Source: Spirochaetae bacterium HGW-Spirochaetae-3
Lineage (GTDB): Bacteria; Spirochaetota; Spirochaetia; Treponematales; UBA12059
Length of the DNA stretch: 64,000 bases
Direction of reading: 5' to 3'
Assembly: GCA_002839315.1 (NCBI GenBank)
Contig: PGXV01000004.1
Coordinates: forward strand, 286,787 to 350,786
This document shows positions 48,089-55,619 of the stretch, in pieces. Under the pieces are notes generated by a model, which had not been told where the DNA came from, made no database searches, and saw nothing but the letters and a program-made list of their open reading frames with translations. The position numbers and the translations under genes are program-made. Every line of letters starts with the position of its first letter. The stretch's first letter is position 1.

Positions 48089-51000
48089 ATGACGATCGAG
48101 TCGAAGAAGCTGACTACCCTGCTCGCTCTGTGTACAATCGCGGCGAGCGCGCTCGCCTTCTCTTGCAAGAGCCCGTTATTCGGGCTCGGCGGCCAGGTGG
48201 ACACCGCGATCCCCGGGATTTCCGTTTCGGAGCTGGAAGAAGGCGGAACGCCCAGGGCGCTTATCAACGGCGACTACGTAAGGGGATCCATAATCCTGCG
48301 CGGTAGCGTCAGCGACGACCTGGGCATCGCCTCCGTCTCGTTGACTTTCTTGGATAGCGGCTCGACCATCACGATCGATGCCGCTCTCGACGCCAAGGCC
48401 CAAAGCTGGGAAGCCACGATAGAAACGGCGGATTTCATCGACGGCAGCAAGGATTTCGTCGTTACCGTAACCGACACGGTGGGCAAGACGTCCACGACGC
48501 GGTTCGTCCTCTACTTCGACAACAAGCCGCCGACGGTACTCCTTACCGTCCCGGCCGCCGACGAAGGCCTGGCATCGGACTCCCTCTACGGCACCGTCGC
48601 GATCAAGGGTAGCGCCGCCGACCAGTTCGGTATACGCAAGGTTCGGGTATTCCTATATAACGAGGCCGGAGCGCTGCTCTACGCCTCGCCAGACGACGCC
48701 TCCATCGGCACCAACTCCTTCGCGCTGCAGCTCGACACCAGCTCGCTGATCGGCAAGACCGGCAGCGAGCGAGGCTACGTCTACGTACGCGCCTGGGATC
48801 GCTCCGGCAATACCAATACCCAGTTCTACCGCCTCGACGAGATCAAGGCGCTCAACGCCAACCTCGGCGCCACCGTAGAAGAGCTCCACGCGCTGGAAAC
48901 GGGAACGTCATCGACGATCAACGACCTGACGCTGGCCGCGCTCGTCGGCACCAGGCGCTATGAGCCGGGCACCGGGTACGACGACGATCACCTGATATCC
49001 TACTATTTCGACCAGAACTCCAATCTGCCCATCATCACGATATCCAACCCCGAAGAAGGCAAGACGGCGAGCCAGAACCTCCTGTCGACGAACGCCAAGG
49101 CCATGGGCCTCGTCCAGGACGCCAACGGCGTCGACCTGGTAGAGATACAGTTCAGGCTCGTGGATTCCACCGAGACCGATTGGTACTACGATGCCCATCC
49201 CGCCGACGACAGCGCAGGCGACGATATAGAGGCGAGCGGTACCGGGCGCGTCGTCAATTGGTATACGAAGCCGCTCTTCGAGAATTACGGCGGCCTTATC
49301 GCCGACGTACAGAACATCCGCGTCCGGGCCACCGATTCCGACGGCAACGTCCGGACTTCGGAATGGGTTCCCTTCACCATCGACGCTAACGTCCCGGACG
49401 TCACGATAACGAGCCCGTTGCCCGGCGATTACCTGAACGGCGATCCGATCACCATAGAGGGGACGGCGAGATCCTACGGTACGGCGACCATCGGCAGGGT
49501 CGATCTATCGGTCGACGGCCAGTTCGACTACGCGGAGGCCAGTATTACTTCCGGCGCCGGCACGCAGAACGTAGAATGGAGCTTCAGCATATCGAGCGCG
49601 CTCGTGCCGACCGACGGCACCTACACGATAAAGGCCCGCGTCACCGACTCCCCCGGCAACAAGCAGGCGCTTTATAACATAGTCGCGACCATAGACCGGA
49701 CGGCCCCCCACAGCCTCGCGTTCATATCGCCGTCCAACGGAGCGAGCGTCAACGGCTATCCGACGATCATGGGGCAGGCCAAGGATAACGTGCTGCTCAA
49801 GGAAGTCTACCTGGTCTTCGAGAAAAGCGGAGAAGAGCAGAAGCTCGCCGACGCATACAATTGGACGTATAACCTCGACGCCGGGATGTCGGCTAATACT
49901 ACCGACGGATACGACATGGGCAACAACATATTCCGCGTGCCGTTCCGGATAAAGGCCGTCGACCAGGCTAACAATATCGCCCTCAGCCCGGCCTTCGGTA
50001 CGGATCCGGACGATCCCGGCGTAGGCTCGTACTATCTCGACGTCGACCTGGACGGAGACAAGCCGGAGATCACGAACATAGTCTCCCCGGGAGCCGAGAA
50101 CGTTATCGGAACTCCATACGTTATCACCGGTTCTATCAAGGTCCAGGGCACGGCGACCGACGACGACAGACTGCACTCCATCGAGATGGCGCTGATAGCG
50201 ATATCGGGCGCGACCGAGAGCTGGCGCAGCCTCGACGGCGCGACGGCGGTCGCCGAGGGGACGTTCTACCCGGTAAACGGATTGACCCTGTGGAGCTACG
50301 TCCTCAACGACTTGGGCAACCTCTACGCGCTGTCCGATCTAGCTGGACACGCGGGGGACTTCAGGATCATCGTCAGGGCCGTCGACACCAAGGACCTCGT
50401 TTCGACAACGCCAGTAGCCGACGTCACCGGCGACGAGCATACCGTCTACGTACGCTTCGACAACACGCTTCCCGGCGTCATCGACCTATCGCCCGAAGAG
50501 GGCACGATGCAGAGCGGCACGTTCCCGCTGACGTTCACCGCGCAGGATAATTTCAGCGTCGTGCTCGCGCAGATCAGCTATAATAACGGGTCGAGCTATG
50601 CCACCTTGCCGATCACGGCGGGCTCGTCCGTCCCGCTTAGCGTCAGCGTCAATACCAAGACCGTCAACGCCGGGGCACTGGCCTCCGTGTCCGGCACGCT
50701 CTACATGCGCATACGGCTCAAGGACGACGGCGACAACATAACGGAGAAGAGCTTCAAGTACCTGATCGATAACATCGCGCCCGTCGACGTCACGGCGCCG
50801 TCCGCCGTAACGATGTCGGCTATCAGCAACCGTATGTATACCGAAGCCGGAGCCAGCCTCGCGGAGATACTCGGCGTCGTCAACGACACGGGTACCGTCC
50901 GAGGCATAGACCGGGTCGAGGTATACTTCGAGCGCGGCGGCGCCATCTATAGGTTGAACCCGGACAAGGCGGCGTCGAGCGTAGCCGGCAAGAGCTATAC

Positions 51001-54000
51001 CTTCTCTAACGGCGTGACCGCGCTATACCCCTACGATACCGAGCCGGACGATCTCGACGACTATAAGGTAATCGTCGATAAGGCGGAGAATTACGTAGAC
51101 GGCGACGCGGACGGATACCAGGAAAGCCTTACCCAGGGCTCGACCGGATATACCTGGGGGGCCCGCTACGATTCTACCAAGATTTACGACGGCGACGTCA
51201 CGGTGCACTACGTCGCATGGGACGACGCGGGCAATTCGTCGCATTTCCAGGCGGCCGGGATAATCACGAACAATCCGCCCGTCCTCGCCGCGATGACGCT
51301 CGGCACGAGCCTGAACGGGGATACGGACGCTACCGACGACGGCGAGCGCGTGAGGCTGACGAGGCAGGCCGACGGCACGTGGCGGGGATACACGCTCAAG
51401 GCCGACGGCAGCCAGTTAGGCGCGGAACGGGTCTACGACCTGGCGGATCCCGTCCTGACGATAAGGAACAACCTGTTCACCTTCAGCGCCGCGGTATCGG
51501 GCGGTAACGCGCCCCTGTCGTATAACGCGCTCGCTCCCGACGGCTCTACGCCTCTGCTCGGATGGGACGCCGCGTCCGCGTACGCGGTCACGGCCTTCGG
51601 GACGGCGGGATGGGTCGAGGACTCCGTCAATACGCTGACGATCCATGCCAGGGACACCGCCTACGGCACGCCGCTGGCGACCGCGGCGCTATCGTTCAAG
51701 GTACGGGTGGACAATACCGACGGCACCGCCCCTGAGATCGGCCTGGCTCCGGTCGGGTCCCGCTACGCGGCCCCTGAAGACGGGCTATCCCTGTCGTACT
51801 CGGCGCGCGCGGAGGAGGCGGTCGAGGGCTATTCAGACAACCTGCTCTGGATCGACGAGGACTTAAACGGCGACTGCTCCTGGGACGAGCGGCTCGGCCA
51901 CGTCGAGCTACCGGCCGACAGCCTCCACGACGGGCTCGACGCCGACGTCTCCGGCGTCGTCAAGATGCGAGGCAAGGTCTACGACGACCAGCGCGTCTCC
52001 AAGCTCACCGTCTCGTTCAGCGTCGGATTCGACACGAACGGCTCGGCAGCCGGCGGCGCCGTGGCGGCCGGGAACGAGATCGATCTGGCCCTTTTCAGCT
52101 CGGGCAACCTGTCCGTCGTCGCGGAGCGCCAGGCCGCCATGGACGCCGCGTCCAACGCGCTGTCGTTCGCGCTCGACGGGAAGAACACGCCGGAGCTAAG
52201 CGACGAGCTCGGACACGCGATGGGTTACGAACTGACATGGAACACCGCGTTCATCACCGGCGTCGCGTCCGACAACGTCATCGTCACCGTCAAGGCGTAC
52301 AACGCCGACGGAACGCTCTCCAGCTCGGCGACACAGACCGTCGACGTGGTGCCGTACATCACCTCCATCGCGCGGAGCGGCGATTATAACACTATCCGCT
52401 CCAGGCACGGGCGATACGCCGCCTCGCTCGGCGAGACGATCACGATCTACGGCTTCAATATCCGGAATTCAGCCTCGGACACGATATCGTTCGGGACCTC
52501 GGCGCCGGTCGCGATATCGTCCGGTGGCATCTCGTCGTTCGGGATCGCGATCCCCGCCTCCGCGAAGAGCGGCCAGGTCACGGTGACGGTAAGCGGTATC
52601 GACTCGATAAACAACGTCAACGCCGACGCCGACTATTCAAGCGAGGCGAGCGCGGCCGCGTCGCTCGACGGCTCCACGCTCTGGGGCGACGATAGGTCCA
52701 TGCATCTATGGAGGTCGGACGACGCCCAGGCAGGCTCGGACCGGGGGTACTTCACCGGCAGCGCCGATCCCGAGTACCCGGCCATGAGCATGGATCCGGC
52801 CACCGGCGTCCTCTACGCCAGCTGGAACAACTACGCGCTTTCCCGCATCTACTGGGGCACGAGCGCCGGAGCCTACTCGACCATATTCACCGGATACGAC
52901 CCGTCCGAGCACACGGATATCCACTACGGCAGCAGGCCGACGGTCGTCTGGAACGCGAACCTCTACGGCAACAATACGTGGAATTCGACCGGCGCCGGCG
53001 GCGTCTACGTCTGGGATCAGTACGCGAACTCGGCGCTGACGGGCACCGGCAACGCCTACGAGTCGGAGCTGCTGTACCACGACCAGAAGCTGATGCAGTT
53101 CATCAACCAGCGCGTCGTGACCTCGGGGTCCGACATCCATATCAGCTACTACGACACCGATACGAAGGCGCTAAAGTACTGGCACCATACGAGCAACACC
53201 AACCCGGCGTACGCGATGGACTGGATCAACGTCGACGGCGGCATGGACGAGCACGATGGCAATTCAACCACCACTATCACCTACGCTAGCGCTACCGCCA
53301 CAAACGTAACGCACCAAGCGCCGTCTAACGGCGTTACCGTTGCAAGTCACAATGTCGTTCTTGGGCAAAAAGTAGCCAGTGGCACGATATTGGTAACATT
53401 GTCGAACGCCACGCAAATAACAGCGACGCAGAACGGTTACGTTTCATACCTATTGGATATAGGGGATGCAGTTTCACGCTGGTCAGCAACCACGGTAGCA
53501 ACGCTTGCTTCACATAGCGTGTACTCAAGCTCTACGAATGTCGGAGAAGCTGTTGTAACCGCGCCCACGGCTACGGTTCTATTGACGCTAACAGACTACG
53601 CAGGGACAAATACAAATATTACAGCAAGCGTAGCTGGACTTATTAGCTACCGCAGCCCCGTAGGAACACCAGTCACCGGAACCACGACTCTCGCTAGCAT
53701 AATGACCGATTATTCGCGCATCGTCTCTGCCAACCGTTCAGCCTCCGCGGGCGAATTCAGCGCCATCGACACCAACCCCTCCGGGTACCCGGTCATCGCG
53801 TACTACGATATGTCCAACCAGACGGTAAAGATAGCCAGGGCGAGCGCGGTCAATCCGAGCGGCGCCCAATGGGCCCTCCAGACAGCGATGGTGGTCACGC
53901 CATGGAAAGACACCAACTTCAAGTACTCAGGCAAGTACATCACGATGAGGATCGACGAGGCCGGCTACCTGCACATGGCGTTCTACCGTAACTCGACGGG

Positions 54001-54472
54001 CGACCTCCTCTATATGAAGTCGACCAACAAACCGTCCGACGGGACGACAGCCTACGCCTTCGGCCCGAGCGTGATCGTCGACGACCTGGGCTCGGTAGGA
54101 GTCTGGGCCGACCTGGCGATATACGAACCGACGCCCGGCTCGACCGCCGAGGACGACGCCAGGCCGTACGTCTCGTACCTGGACTCGTCCCTGGCGAACA
54201 CCTTCGACGGTATCAAGGTAGCCTATTGGGACCCTGGCCTGGAGCGCTCGTCCGACGGCCTGCCGTCGGGAGGCATCGATTCTGACAGTCAGCCGGACTC
54301 CCCGGACGGCTGGGAGACGATCAACGCCCCGATGCTCTACGAGGTAGAGAACGTACGCACCGGCGTCGAGTATTATAATGACGCCGGGGCTCCCCCCGAT
54401 TCCGACTACTCGATCAGGATAGGCTATTCATCGACCGATTATTACCGCGTCGGCTACTACGTCAAGGAATAG
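48089..54472 (+). CDS. giant multidomain surface lipoprotein, 2127 residues
   Basis: MTIESKKLTTLLALCTIAASALAFSCK is a signal peptide with a loose lipobox (AFSC). From residue ~55 to ~1430 come about eight Ig/cadherin-like beta domains with repeated patterns such as VDLVEIQFRLVD, RVRATDSDGNVRTSEW, VTDSPGNKQALYN and PPTVLL/VPDVTITSPLPGDYLNGD. Residues ~1430-1535 form an IPT/TIG-like domain (PYITSIARSG, ETITIYGFNIRNSASDTISF). The C-terminal part is propeller-like with SGYPVIAYYDMSNQTVKIA and LHMAFYRNSTGDLLYMKS motifs. It is interrupted near residues 1725-1883 by a lower-GC insertion. The function may be adhesion or substrate binding; this is inference. It is followed by the M23-type and barrel genes. 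Confidence 0.88.
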   Translation: MTIESKKLTTLLALCTIAASALAFSCKSPLFGLGGQVDTAIPGISVSELEEGGTPRALINGDYVRGSIILRGSVSDDLGIASVSLTFLDSGSTITIDAALDAKAQSWEATIETADFIDGSKDFVVTVTDTVGKTSTTRFVLYFDNKPPTVLLTVPAADEGLASDSLYGTVAIKGSAADQFGIRKVRVFLYNEAGALLYASPDDASIGTNSFALQLDTSSLIGKTGSERGYVYVRAWDRSGNTNTQFYRLDEIKALNANLGATVEELHALETGTSSTINDLTLAALVGTRRYEPGTGYDDDHLISYYFDQNSNLPIITISNPEEGKTASQNLLSTNAKAMGLVQDANGVDLVEIQFRLVDSTETDWYYDAHPADDSAGDDIEASGTGRVVNWYTKPLFENYGGLIADVQNIRVRATDSDGNVRTSEWVPFTIDANVPDVTITSPLPGDYLNGDPITIEGTARSYGTATIGRVDLSVDGQFDYAEASITSGAGTQNVEWSFSISSALVPTDGTYTIKARVTDSPGNKQALYNIVATIDRTAPHSLAFISPSNGASVNGYPTIMGQAKDNVLLKEVYLVFEKSGEEQKLADAYNWTYNLDAGMSANTTDGYDMGNNIFRVPFRIKAVDQANNIALSPAFGTDPDDPGVGSYYLDVDLDGDKPEITNIVSPGAENVIGTPYVITGSIKVQGTATDDDRLHSIEMALIAISGATESWRSLDGATAVAEGTFYPVNGLTLWSYVLNDLGNLYALSDLAGHAGDFRIIVRAVDTKDLVSTTPVADVTGDEHTVYVRFDNTLPGVIDLSPEEGTMQSGTFPLTFTAQDNFSVVLAQISYNNGSSYATLPITAGSSVPLSVSVNTKTVNAGALASVSGTLYMRIRLKDDGDNITEKSFKYLIDNIAPVDVTAPSAVTMSAISNRMYTEAGASLAEILGVVNDTGTVRGIDRVEVYFERGGAIYRLNPDKAASSVAGKSYTFSNGVTALYPYDTEPDDLDDYKVIVDKAENYVDGDADGYQESLTQGSTGYTWGARYDSTKIYDGDVTVHYVAWDDAGNSSHFQAAGIITNNPPVLAAMTLGTSLNGDTDATDDGERVRLTRQADGTWRGYTLKADGSQLGAERVYDLADPVLTIRNNLFTFSAAVSGGNAPLSYNALAPDGSTPLLGWDAASAYAVTAFGTAGWVEDSVNTLTIHARDTAYGTPLATAALSFKVRVDNTDGTAPEIGLAPVGSRYAAPEDGLSLSYSARAEEAVEGYSDNLLWIDEDLNGDCSWDERLGHVELPADSLHDGLDADVSGVVKMRGKVYDDQRVSKLTVSFSVGFDTNGSAAGGAVAAGNEIDLALFSSGNLSVVAERQAAMDAASNALSFALDGKNTPELSDELGHAMGYELTWNTAFITGVASDNVIVTVKAYNADGTLSSSATQTVDVVPYITSIARSGDYNTIRSRHGRYAASLGETITIYGFNIRNSASDTISFGTSAPVAISSGGISSFGIAIPASAKSGQVTVTVSGIDSINNVNADADYSSEASAAASLDGSTLWGDDRSMHLWRSDDAQAGSDRGYFTGSADPEYPAMSMDPATGVLYASWNNYALSRIYWGTSAGAYSTIFTGYDPSEHTDIHYGSRPTVVWNANLYGNNTWNSTGAGGVYVWDQYANSALTGTGNAYESELLYHDQKLMQFINQRVVTSGSDIHISYYDTDTKALKYWHHTSNTNPAYAMDWINVDGGMDEHDGNSTTTITYASATATNVTHQAPSNGVTVASHNVVLGQKVASGTILVTLSNATQITATQNGYVSYLLDIGDAVSRWSATTVATLASHSVYSSSTNVGEAVVTAPTATVLLTLTDYAGTNTNITASVAGLISYRSPVGTPVTGTTTLASIMTDYSRIVSANRSASAGEFSAIDTNPSGYPVIAYYDMSNQTVKIARASAVNPSGAQWALQTAMVVTPWKDTNFKYSGKYITMRIDEAGYLHMAFYRNSTGDLLYMKSTNKPSDGTTAYAFGPSVIVDDLGSVGVWADLAIYEPTPGSTAEDDARPYVSYLDSSLANTFDGIKVAYWDPGLERSSDGLPSGGIDSDSQPDSPDGWETINAPMLYEVENVRTGVEYYNDAGAPPDSDYSIRIGYSSTDYYRVGYYVKE
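53260..53735 (+). other. lower-GC in-frame insertion encoding two barrel-sandwich-like repeats
   Basis: Base composition and codon choice change abruptly (many ACA, GTT, CAA, ATA, TCA codons) against very GC-rich flanks. The encoded ~160 residues contain two related units: NGVTVASHNVVLGQKVASGT...ITATQNGYVSYLLDIGDAV and ITASVAGLISYRSPVGTPV, which follow the biotinyl-lipoyl/HlyD barrel-sandwich pattern without a modifiable lysine. The flanking propeller sequence would join smoothly if it were removed. Both edges carry AATTCA (near 53258 and 53753). Confidence 0.6.
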
Positions 54473-54479
54473 CCCTCGC

Positions 54480-54509
54480 TTGACCCCCCCGCCCCCGCCC
54501 CGCTAGACT
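54480..54509 (+). promoter_or_regulatory. promoter of the M23-type gene with C7 tract in its spacer
   Basis: TTGACC (54480-54485), 18 bases, TAGACT (54504-54509). The spacer is almost pure C, beginning with an uninterrupted C7 run (54484-54490). A change in run length would alter the -35/-10 spacing. Confidence 0.5.
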
Positions 54510-54563
54510 GATCGTCCCGGCGGCGCCGGGAGCCTCGGGGCGGCCGGGAGAAAGGGGGAGCGT

Positions 54564-55619
54564 ATCGGGAAGCGCGCGTTCTATACGACGGTCATCATCG
54601 CCGCGTGCTGGCTCCTCGTCTTCGCCGCGGTCGCGCTGGCTATCGGCCCCGACAGGGCCAGGGCCGGACGCGGGGCGGCCGTCGCCGGGGGCCTCTCGCT
54701 CGTCGATCCTGGCAGTACGACCCCCCTTACGACAGCCTCTACAACGCTCGCCGAGACCTCGGTCCGCGGCCTGAGCGGTCTGGAGCGCATACGTTTCTCG
54801 TCGGCCGTCCTGTCGCCTAAGGCCCTGATCGGCGTCGAACCCGAACTCGCCAAGCAACGCGCCATCGACTGGGTAGACGCCGTAACGTCGGAAGGCGGTT
54901 CCCCCATCGACGCGATAGGGGAAATCCTGCCGCCCTCGCTGTGGTTCCAGGCCCGCCTCGTTACGAAGCGCGACGAATCCGACCTCGCCGCCGACGCGAA
55001 GGCCGAAGGAGAATACGGCAAGGCCTATGCCGCCCTGTCGGGCGCGCTAGCCGGCACCAAGTCCGCCTCAGGCGCGCTGGAAGCGGCTATCGACGAGATA
55101 TGGCGCCGTTCAGGGGTAGCTGCCCGGCTTAAGCGCGGCCCCGCGACTCCGCTCAAGCGTTCGGACCGATGGATCCCCGCCGCGTCCGCCCTCAAGTCGT
55201 CCCACCAATACGCCCTCGACATATTCTTCACCGGCTTCAAGCGCCATGGCGCCTCCGAGGTAGGTCCCGTCATCCATAGCATGAGCTCGGGAGTCGTCGT
55301 CTCGGTATCAGCGGACTGGTCGGGCGGCGACAGGCCGTCCCAGTACCGTTCCGGCGGTTTATCGCCCAAGGCCGGCAACGGTGCCGTCGTCTATTCCCCC
55401 GACGAACGACGATACTACGCGTACTTCCATATGAACGACGTAGACGTGCGCGCGGGGCAGATCGTCGAGGCCGGACAATCGCTTGGGCGCGGCGGCAATA
55501 CCGGCGTCAACGCGCGCAAGAGAGGCCACGGCGGCCATGTCCACGTGGAAATCCACGACGCGGACGGCAGCGCGCTGACATCGTACGCCATCCGCGACCT
55601 AATTTTGTCCATTCGCTGA
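54564..55619 (+). CDS. membrane-anchored M23/LytM-type peptidase-like protein (probable ATC start)
   Basis: The LytM-like domain is clear at the C-terminus: YAYFHMNDVDVRAGQIVEAG, SLGRGGNTGVNARKRGHGGH and the HVH metal motif. The first ATG in frame (55281) would leave 112 residues. The frame is open back to a stop at 54504 and encodes a membrane anchor (FYTTVIIAACWLLVFAAVAL), a linker and a helical region, so the real protein is longer. The only start candidate after GGGGGAG is ATC at 54564, giving 351 residues. The usual HxxxD zinc motif reads HGASE (HxxxE), so hydrolase activity is uncertain. It lies behind a promoter and before an outer-membrane barrel gene. Confidence 0.75.
   Translation: MGKRAFYTTVIIAACWLLVFAAVALAIGPDRARAGRGAAVAGGLSLVDPGSTTPLTTASTTLAETSVRGLSGLERIRFSSAVLSPKALIGVEPELAKQRAIDWVDAVTSEGGSPIDAIGEILPPSLWFQARLVTKRDESDLAADAKAEGEYGKAYAALSGALAGTKSASGALEAAIDEIWRRSGVAARLKRGPATPLKRSDRWIPAASALKSSHQYALDIFFTGFKRHGASEVGPVIHSMSSGVVVSVSADWSGGDRPSQYRSGGLSPKAGNGAVVYSPDERRYYAYFHMNDVDVRAGQIVEAGQSLGRGGNTGVNARKRGHGGHVHVEIHDADGSALTSYAIRDLILSIR

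What the first reader, a model, noticed from the sequence alone, without database searches (positions are those of the whole stretch)
53260..53735. Foreign-looking domain insertion in the giant lipoprotein
A 160-codon, lower-GC block is inserted in frame in a propeller loop and encodes two tandem barrel-sandwich-like repeats lacking the modifiable lysine. Edges share AATTCA. This looks like recent cassette acquisition into a surface protein, perhaps for antigenic change or new ligand binding.
Basis: partly seen in the sequence, partly recalled or inferred. Interest (0 to 1): 0.66.

Follow-up and report, generated by a model that had tools for sequence, protein, structure and literature searches.

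The report
Swappable domain slot in spirochaete lipoprotein
A large spirochaete lipoprotein carries, in one loop of its propeller-shaped tip, a 160-residue pair of small biotin-domain-like folds that look imported, and in related spirochaetes the same loop holds nothing, one, two or about three such folds, so the loop behaves like a socket for changeable domains.

Summary
Window 53255-53740 is an in-frame, sharply bounded block (GC3 0.48 against 0.86 in the same gene, synonymous-level z -14) inside a 2127-aa Ig-stalk lipoprotein. AlphaFold places it between strand D of one blade and strand A of the next in a seven-bladed propeller resembling PLL lectins. Alone it folds as two barrel-sandwich hybrids (BSH) lacking the modifiable lysine.

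The interpretation needs widening. The empty site exists in relatives, with an 11-residue loop in G028. A 55% identical two-repeat block sits at the same site in another genus, G019, with composition nearly matching its gene. Across Spirochaetales the loop holds 0, 1, 2 or about 3 BSH repeats, or unrelated inserts. It is by far the most length-variable loop of the aligned region. BSH carriers do not form a clade on the flank tree. All 13 inserts of 82 aa or more have lower GC3 than their gene predicts; nine are the lowest window held.

Best reading: a recurrent domain-insertion slot on the propeller's presumed ligand face, with cassette replacement from a lower-GC relative in this genome. The shared AATTCA is chance. 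Antigenic change is untested. No donor or mobile element was found.

The parts
48089..54472 (+). Giant lipoprotein gene, 2127 aa: signal peptide with lipobox-like ALAFSC (Cys26), Ig-like repeats, C-terminal seven-bladed propeller
   Evidence: Open frame and translation; Pfam Big_7 repeats; lipobox read from sequence; propeller by model
52697..54469 (+). Seven-bladed beta-propeller domain (model residues 100-690), interrupted by the block
   Evidence: AlphaFold model pLDDT 80.9, pTM 0.74; VIA-align Z 27 to PLL/PHL lectins and CylK
53255..53740 (+). Low-GC3 block (slot content), about 160 codons
   Evidence: Maximum-scoring GC3 segment; synonymous-level deviation
53261..53713 (+). Net insertion relative to the empty orthologous slot of G028 (HDG|TRVVDAGGTSRSASAGEF), approximate edges
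   Evidence: Slot comparison
53297..53509 (+). Barrel-sandwich repeat 1 (block-model residues 15-85)
   Evidence: Block-alone model; Z about 11 to BCCP/HlyD-type domains, rmsd 1.4 over 66-67 residues; repeat alignment
53510..53704 (+). Barrel-sandwich repeat 2 (block-model residues 86-150)
   Evidence: Model; similarity to repeat 1 z 4.3 and to the Brucepastera repeat z 6.9
53225..53260 (+). Left conserved anchor INVDGGMDEHDG, end of the blade before the slot
   Evidence: Alignment A5
53735..53767 (+). Right conserved anchor RSASAGEFSAI, start of the next blade
   Evidence: Alignments A3, A5

Best explanation
The block is a domain insertion at a recurrent insertion slot: the loop from outer strand D of one propeller blade to inner strand A of the next, in the propeller head of an Ig-stalked lipoprotein of Spirochaetales. 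The slot accepts 0 to about 3 unmodifiable barrel-sandwich (biotinyl/lipoyl-like) domains or other inserts without disturbing the propeller. In this genome the present two-domain cassette most likely replaced or filled the slot by transfer from a lower-GC relative of the same protein family, because its codon usage is foreign while its protein sequence has diverged from the G019 cassette about as much as the flanks have. The likely role is to vary or extend what the propeller face binds outside the cell. Shown: block, predicted fold, site, empty and filled relatives, composition. Inferred: transfer, donor type, surface exposure, ligand role.
For: Sharp composition edges coinciding with the slot and a synonymous-level effect. 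Empty slot in G028, Zod_Metabat.700, Zod_Metabat.41 and G034; homologous block in G019; one, two or about three repeats in Brucepastera, SZUA-438, G194, G139/Treponema Emb289, G093, G012 and G068. No other loop of the aligned region varies by more than 23 residues, against up to 160 within the slot. BSH carriers as one clade rejected, p 1.5e-15. Block identity to G019 55%, flanks 56-59%, so protein-level constraint is not visibly relaxed. Block codons fit mid-GC spirochaete genes up to 70 log units better than its own gene. Slot GC3 is below expectation in 23 of 24 loci examined. Fold and site.
Against: No donor copy was found in the own genome, two partly overlapping sets of about 395 order and class genomes, phages, plasmids or viral contigs. 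The flank tree does not reject focal plus G019 as sisters (p 0.28 with 9 rows, 0.08 with 26), so vertical inheritance of the block with a later composition change remains possible. No terminal repeat or target duplication, and none of the neighbouring genes scanned is a mobile-element gene. The general low GC3 of slots could come from local mutation or recombination effects rather than import.
Confidence: 0.62

Rival explanations
1. Vertical inheritance: the two-repeat block was in the common ancestor of the focal genome and G019, was lost in G028 and Zod_Metabat.700, and the focal copy drifted to lower GC3 because a heterologous loop escapes the GC-raising force (selection or GC-biased gene conversion) acting on the rest of the gene.
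For: Focal plus G019 as sisters not rejected; repeats 1-1 and 2-2 are the best matches, so the cassette is collinear; slots are generally GC3-poor in many genomes; bacterial mutation is AT-biased in general (PMC2936535).
Against: G019's block, of the same age in this scenario, stayed at GC3 0.83; the block's protein identity equals the flanks', so constraint is not visibly relaxed; the rest of the gene stretch held keeps high GC3; edges are abrupt.
Confidence: 0.25
2. Recent first-time gain of a foreign cassette by an ancestor with an empty slot, by illegitimate recombination, with no earlier slot content.
For: Empty slots exist in close gene relatives; foreign composition.
Against: The homologous cassette at exactly the same site in G019 makes an independent first gain less likely than replacement or inheritance; no target duplication or terminal-repeat traces.
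Confidence: 0.1
3. Dedicated antigenic-variation or diversity-generating system (silent cassettes or a retroelement) rewriting this loop within the organism.
For: The slot is hypervariable between species.
Against: No second copy of the block or of the propeller gene in the own genome; the differences are whole domains between species, not point changes.
Confidence: 0.03

Closest known systems
Barrel-sandwich hybrid domains: Biotin_lipoyl (PF00364), HlyD/CusB-type membrane-fusion lipoyl domains
   Same: Predicted fold (Z about 11, rmsd 1.4-1.7 over 66-72 residues) and the G..V..G..L....I.A...G.V motif; inserts of G019, G012 and G093 pass the Pfam cut-off
   Different: No modifiable lysine in the hairpin; placed as tandem repeats in a propeller loop of a lipoprotein, not in a carboxylase, dehydrogenase or efflux adaptor; the focal copy itself is below the Pfam cut-off
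PLL/PHL seven-bladed propeller lectins of Photorhabdus (PMC6943638, PMC5584973)
   Same: Seven-bladed propeller fold, Z 26-27 over about 300 residues
   Different: About 9% identity; head of a giant lipoprotein rather than a free-standing lectin; sugar-binding residues not checked; lectins in the list are about 340-350 residues, leaving no room for a domain-sized interblade insert
Integrin alpha I (A) domain inserted in a propeller loop between two blades
   Same: Works alike in architecture: a separate domain inserted between two blades of a seven-bladed propeller (integrin propeller heads appear in the fold list; I-domain placement from general knowledge)
   Different: Unrelated inserted fold (no Rossmann/MIDAS domain); bacterial; analogy only
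Polymorphic-toxin type cassette exchange, a conserved scaffold with swapped modules (PMC3482391, abstract)
   Same: Conserved scaffold with an exchanged module
   Different: Module is internal, not C-terminal; no standalone cassettes in the genome; no toxin domain

Membership tests
Biotin_lipoyl / barrel-sandwich hybrid | Barrel-sandwich fold | tested here: met
   Block-alone model pLDDT 88.6; VIA-align Z 11 to BCCP and HlyD
Biotin_lipoyl / barrel-sandwich hybrid | Profile match above curated cut-off | tested here: inconclusive
   Focal 16.1 bits against 22.1 (not reached); inserts at the same site G019 22.3, G012 23.9, G093 22.8 (reached)
Biotinylated or lipoylated carrier domain | Modifiable lysine in the beta-hairpin | tested here: not met
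   Hairpins read SNATQ and TDYAGTNTN; no Lys; also absent from the hairpins of G019, G012, Brucepastera and SZUA-438
PLL-type propeller lectin | Seven-bladed propeller | tested here: met
   Model and Z 27
PLL-type propeller lectin | Conserved sugar-binding residues between blades | not tested
   Model coordinates were not inspected at residue level
Spirochaetal surface lipoprotein | Signal peptide with lipobox | tested here: inconclusive
   MTIESKKLTTLLALCTIAASALAFSC read by eye from the sequence; no signal-peptide program was run
Spirochaetal surface lipoprotein | Exposure on the cell surface | not testable with these tools
   Needs an experiment
Diversity-generating retroelement target | Template repeat elsewhere in the genome | tested here: not met
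   Protein search of the own genome to E 10 found only the block itself
Transposon or mobile-cassette insertion | Terminal repeats or target-site duplication at the edges | tested here: not met
   No edge repeats beyond chance

The most novel reading that the evidence does not exclude
The D-A loop is an evolved exchange slot: Spirochaetales propeller lipoproteins repeatedly swap whole ligand-binding cassettes (mostly unmodifiable barrel-sandwich repeats) between species by recombination, leaving a persistent GC3-poor signature, in an architecture parallel to integrin I-domain insertion.
Probability: 0.25. Interest if true: 0.7.

Novelty: new variant of a known kind. Interest (0 to 1): 0.5.

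Why it matters
It gives a concrete, repeated case of intragenic domain exchange in bacteria, with empty and filled sites and a composition record. It also shows biotin-domain-like folds used as unmodified decorations on a propeller that is probably outside the cell. The pattern that slot inserts are poorer in GC3 than their own gene in many genomes makes it testable whether inserts are imported or whether non-homologous loops escape the force that keeps GC high.

Tried and rejected
AATTCA as a duplication or recombination mark: rejected, 55% of random 50-base pairs share a 6-mer and the right copy is inside the conserved flank. Donor search in own genome, family, order and class genomes, phages, plasmids and viral contigs: only G019 clear. 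Other low-GC3 islands in the genome sample: the ones inspected were ORF over-extensions, not domains. Flank tree as proof of transfer between the focal and G019 lineages: not decisive, AU p 0.28 and 0.08. Relatives of the block in the PDB by sequence: none. Viral structure library: best matches are lipoyl-domain proteins of giant viruses, weak. Literature searches for a described barrel-sandwich insertion in a propeller or for such a slot in spirochaetes found nothing that describes it in the open-access library held.

Full report
What is there. The window gene 48089-54472 (+) encodes a 2127-aa protein with a lipoprotein-type signal peptide (Cys26, read by eye), Ig-like repeats and a C-terminal region. 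A maximum-scoring segment on third-position GC, with no prior on place, returns 53255-53740 as the strongest anomalous stretch: GC3 0.48 inside against about 0.86 around it. The effect is synonymous: the same amino acids written in the gene's own codon usage would give 0.85, and none of 720 control windows in the stretch of the gene held is close. In 417 kb of sampled ORFs of the same genome, the other low-GC3 segments that I inspected were ORFs running out of frame into or across neighbours, so an internal island of this kind is rare here.

Fold and place. A 26-sequence alignment of relatives gave a 690-aa model with pLDDT 80.9 and pTM 0.74. The flanks form a seven-bladed propeller that matches PLL/PHL lectins and CylK at Z 27. 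By strand count the block lies between strand 276-279, the last of one blade, and strand 450-458, the first of the next; that is the D-to-A interblade loop, which by general knowledge of propellers lies on the usual ligand-binding face. The block modelled alone (pLDDT 88.6) gives two barrel-sandwich hybrids, Z about 11 to biotin carboxyl carrier proteins and HlyD-type adaptors. The matches that run from residues 1-5 to about 150 with only some 70 residues aligned hint that the first strand of the second barrel precedes the first barrel, so the first may be nested in the second; this is inference from the aligned ranges. Neither hairpin has a lysine, so biotinylation or lipoylation is not expected.

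The site in relatives. Flank searches recover orthologues across Spirochaetales. The same loop is short in G028 (11 residues: GTRVVDAGGTS), Zod_Metabat.700 and Zod_Metabat.41. It holds one barrel-sandwich repeat in Brucepastera parasyntrophica, SZUA-438, G194, Treponema Emb289P3bin37 and G093 (and probably G042). It holds two repeats in the focal genome and G019, and two clear repeats plus a degenerate third in G012 and G068. A few have unrelated inserts (L045, L022, L049). Within the aligned 690 residues the largest length range of any other loop is 23 residues; within this slot it is up to 160.

History. The G019 block is 55% identical and collinear, repeat 1 to repeat 1 and 2 to 2, about the same identity as the flanks (56-59%). 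Barrel-sandwich carriers as a group do not form a clade on the flank tree (p 1.5e-15), so the state of the slot has changed several times. Whether focal and G019 share the block by descent or by transfer is open: the tree prefers G019 with the empty G028 and Zod_Metabat.700 (98/94), but a focal-G019 pairing is not rejected (p 0.28 and 0.08). The case for replacement in the focal genome rests on composition: the DNA of the same cassette in G019 has GC3 0.83, the block's protein constraint is not visibly relaxed, and its codons fit mid-GC spirochaete genes up to 70 log units better than its own gene.

A wider pattern. Comparing each slot with its own gene's codon usage, 23 of 24 slots are below expectation; all 13 inserts of at least 82 residues are, and nine slots, all among these, are the lowest window of the gene stretch held. 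This was noticed after the focal result, the sequences are not independent, and the genomes were not chosen at random, so it is a lead and not a test. It fits repeated import of lower-GC cassettes, or a force that keeps GC high in homologous DNA and misses loops without a homologous partner. AT-biased mutation in bacteria is documented (PMC2936535).

Function. The most likely reading is an extracellular binding head whose specificity or reach is altered by the loop cassette, as integrin I domains do by analogy. No ligand evidence exists here. Antigenic variation within the organism is unlikely: one gene, no silent copies.

Limits. No donor was found. The genome background is a sample. Structures are predictions. 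GC3 of each slot depends on where its edges were cut by the flank alignments.

Noticed in passing
window 54507-55619 (+): M23 peptidase ORF (Pfam E 2e-9) directly downstream has no ATG/GTG/TTG in frame before 55281, well into the open frame; a purine-rich AAAGGGGGAGC stretch precedes an ATC codon, so it may use a rare start codon or hold a sequencing error.
   Followed up: partly
L022 289-684: A related propeller gene fragment (G017) carries an insert resembling phage-tail or adhesin repeats (HGLAVDTPVIF...AGLVAGQEYYVV) in about the same region.
   Followed up: no
L003, L027, L028, L029, L030: Orthologues have much larger open frames (about 3,700 to 6,200 aa) than the focal 2127 aa; the focal protein appears to have a shorter stalk.
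   Followed up: no
L037: The G028 gene is itself uneven in composition: first 630 codons held GC3 0.80, flanks near the slot 0.66.
   Followed up: no
slots of 24 loci: Slot DNA is GC3-poor relative to its own gene in nearly all relatives examined, not only in the focal one.
   Followed up: partly
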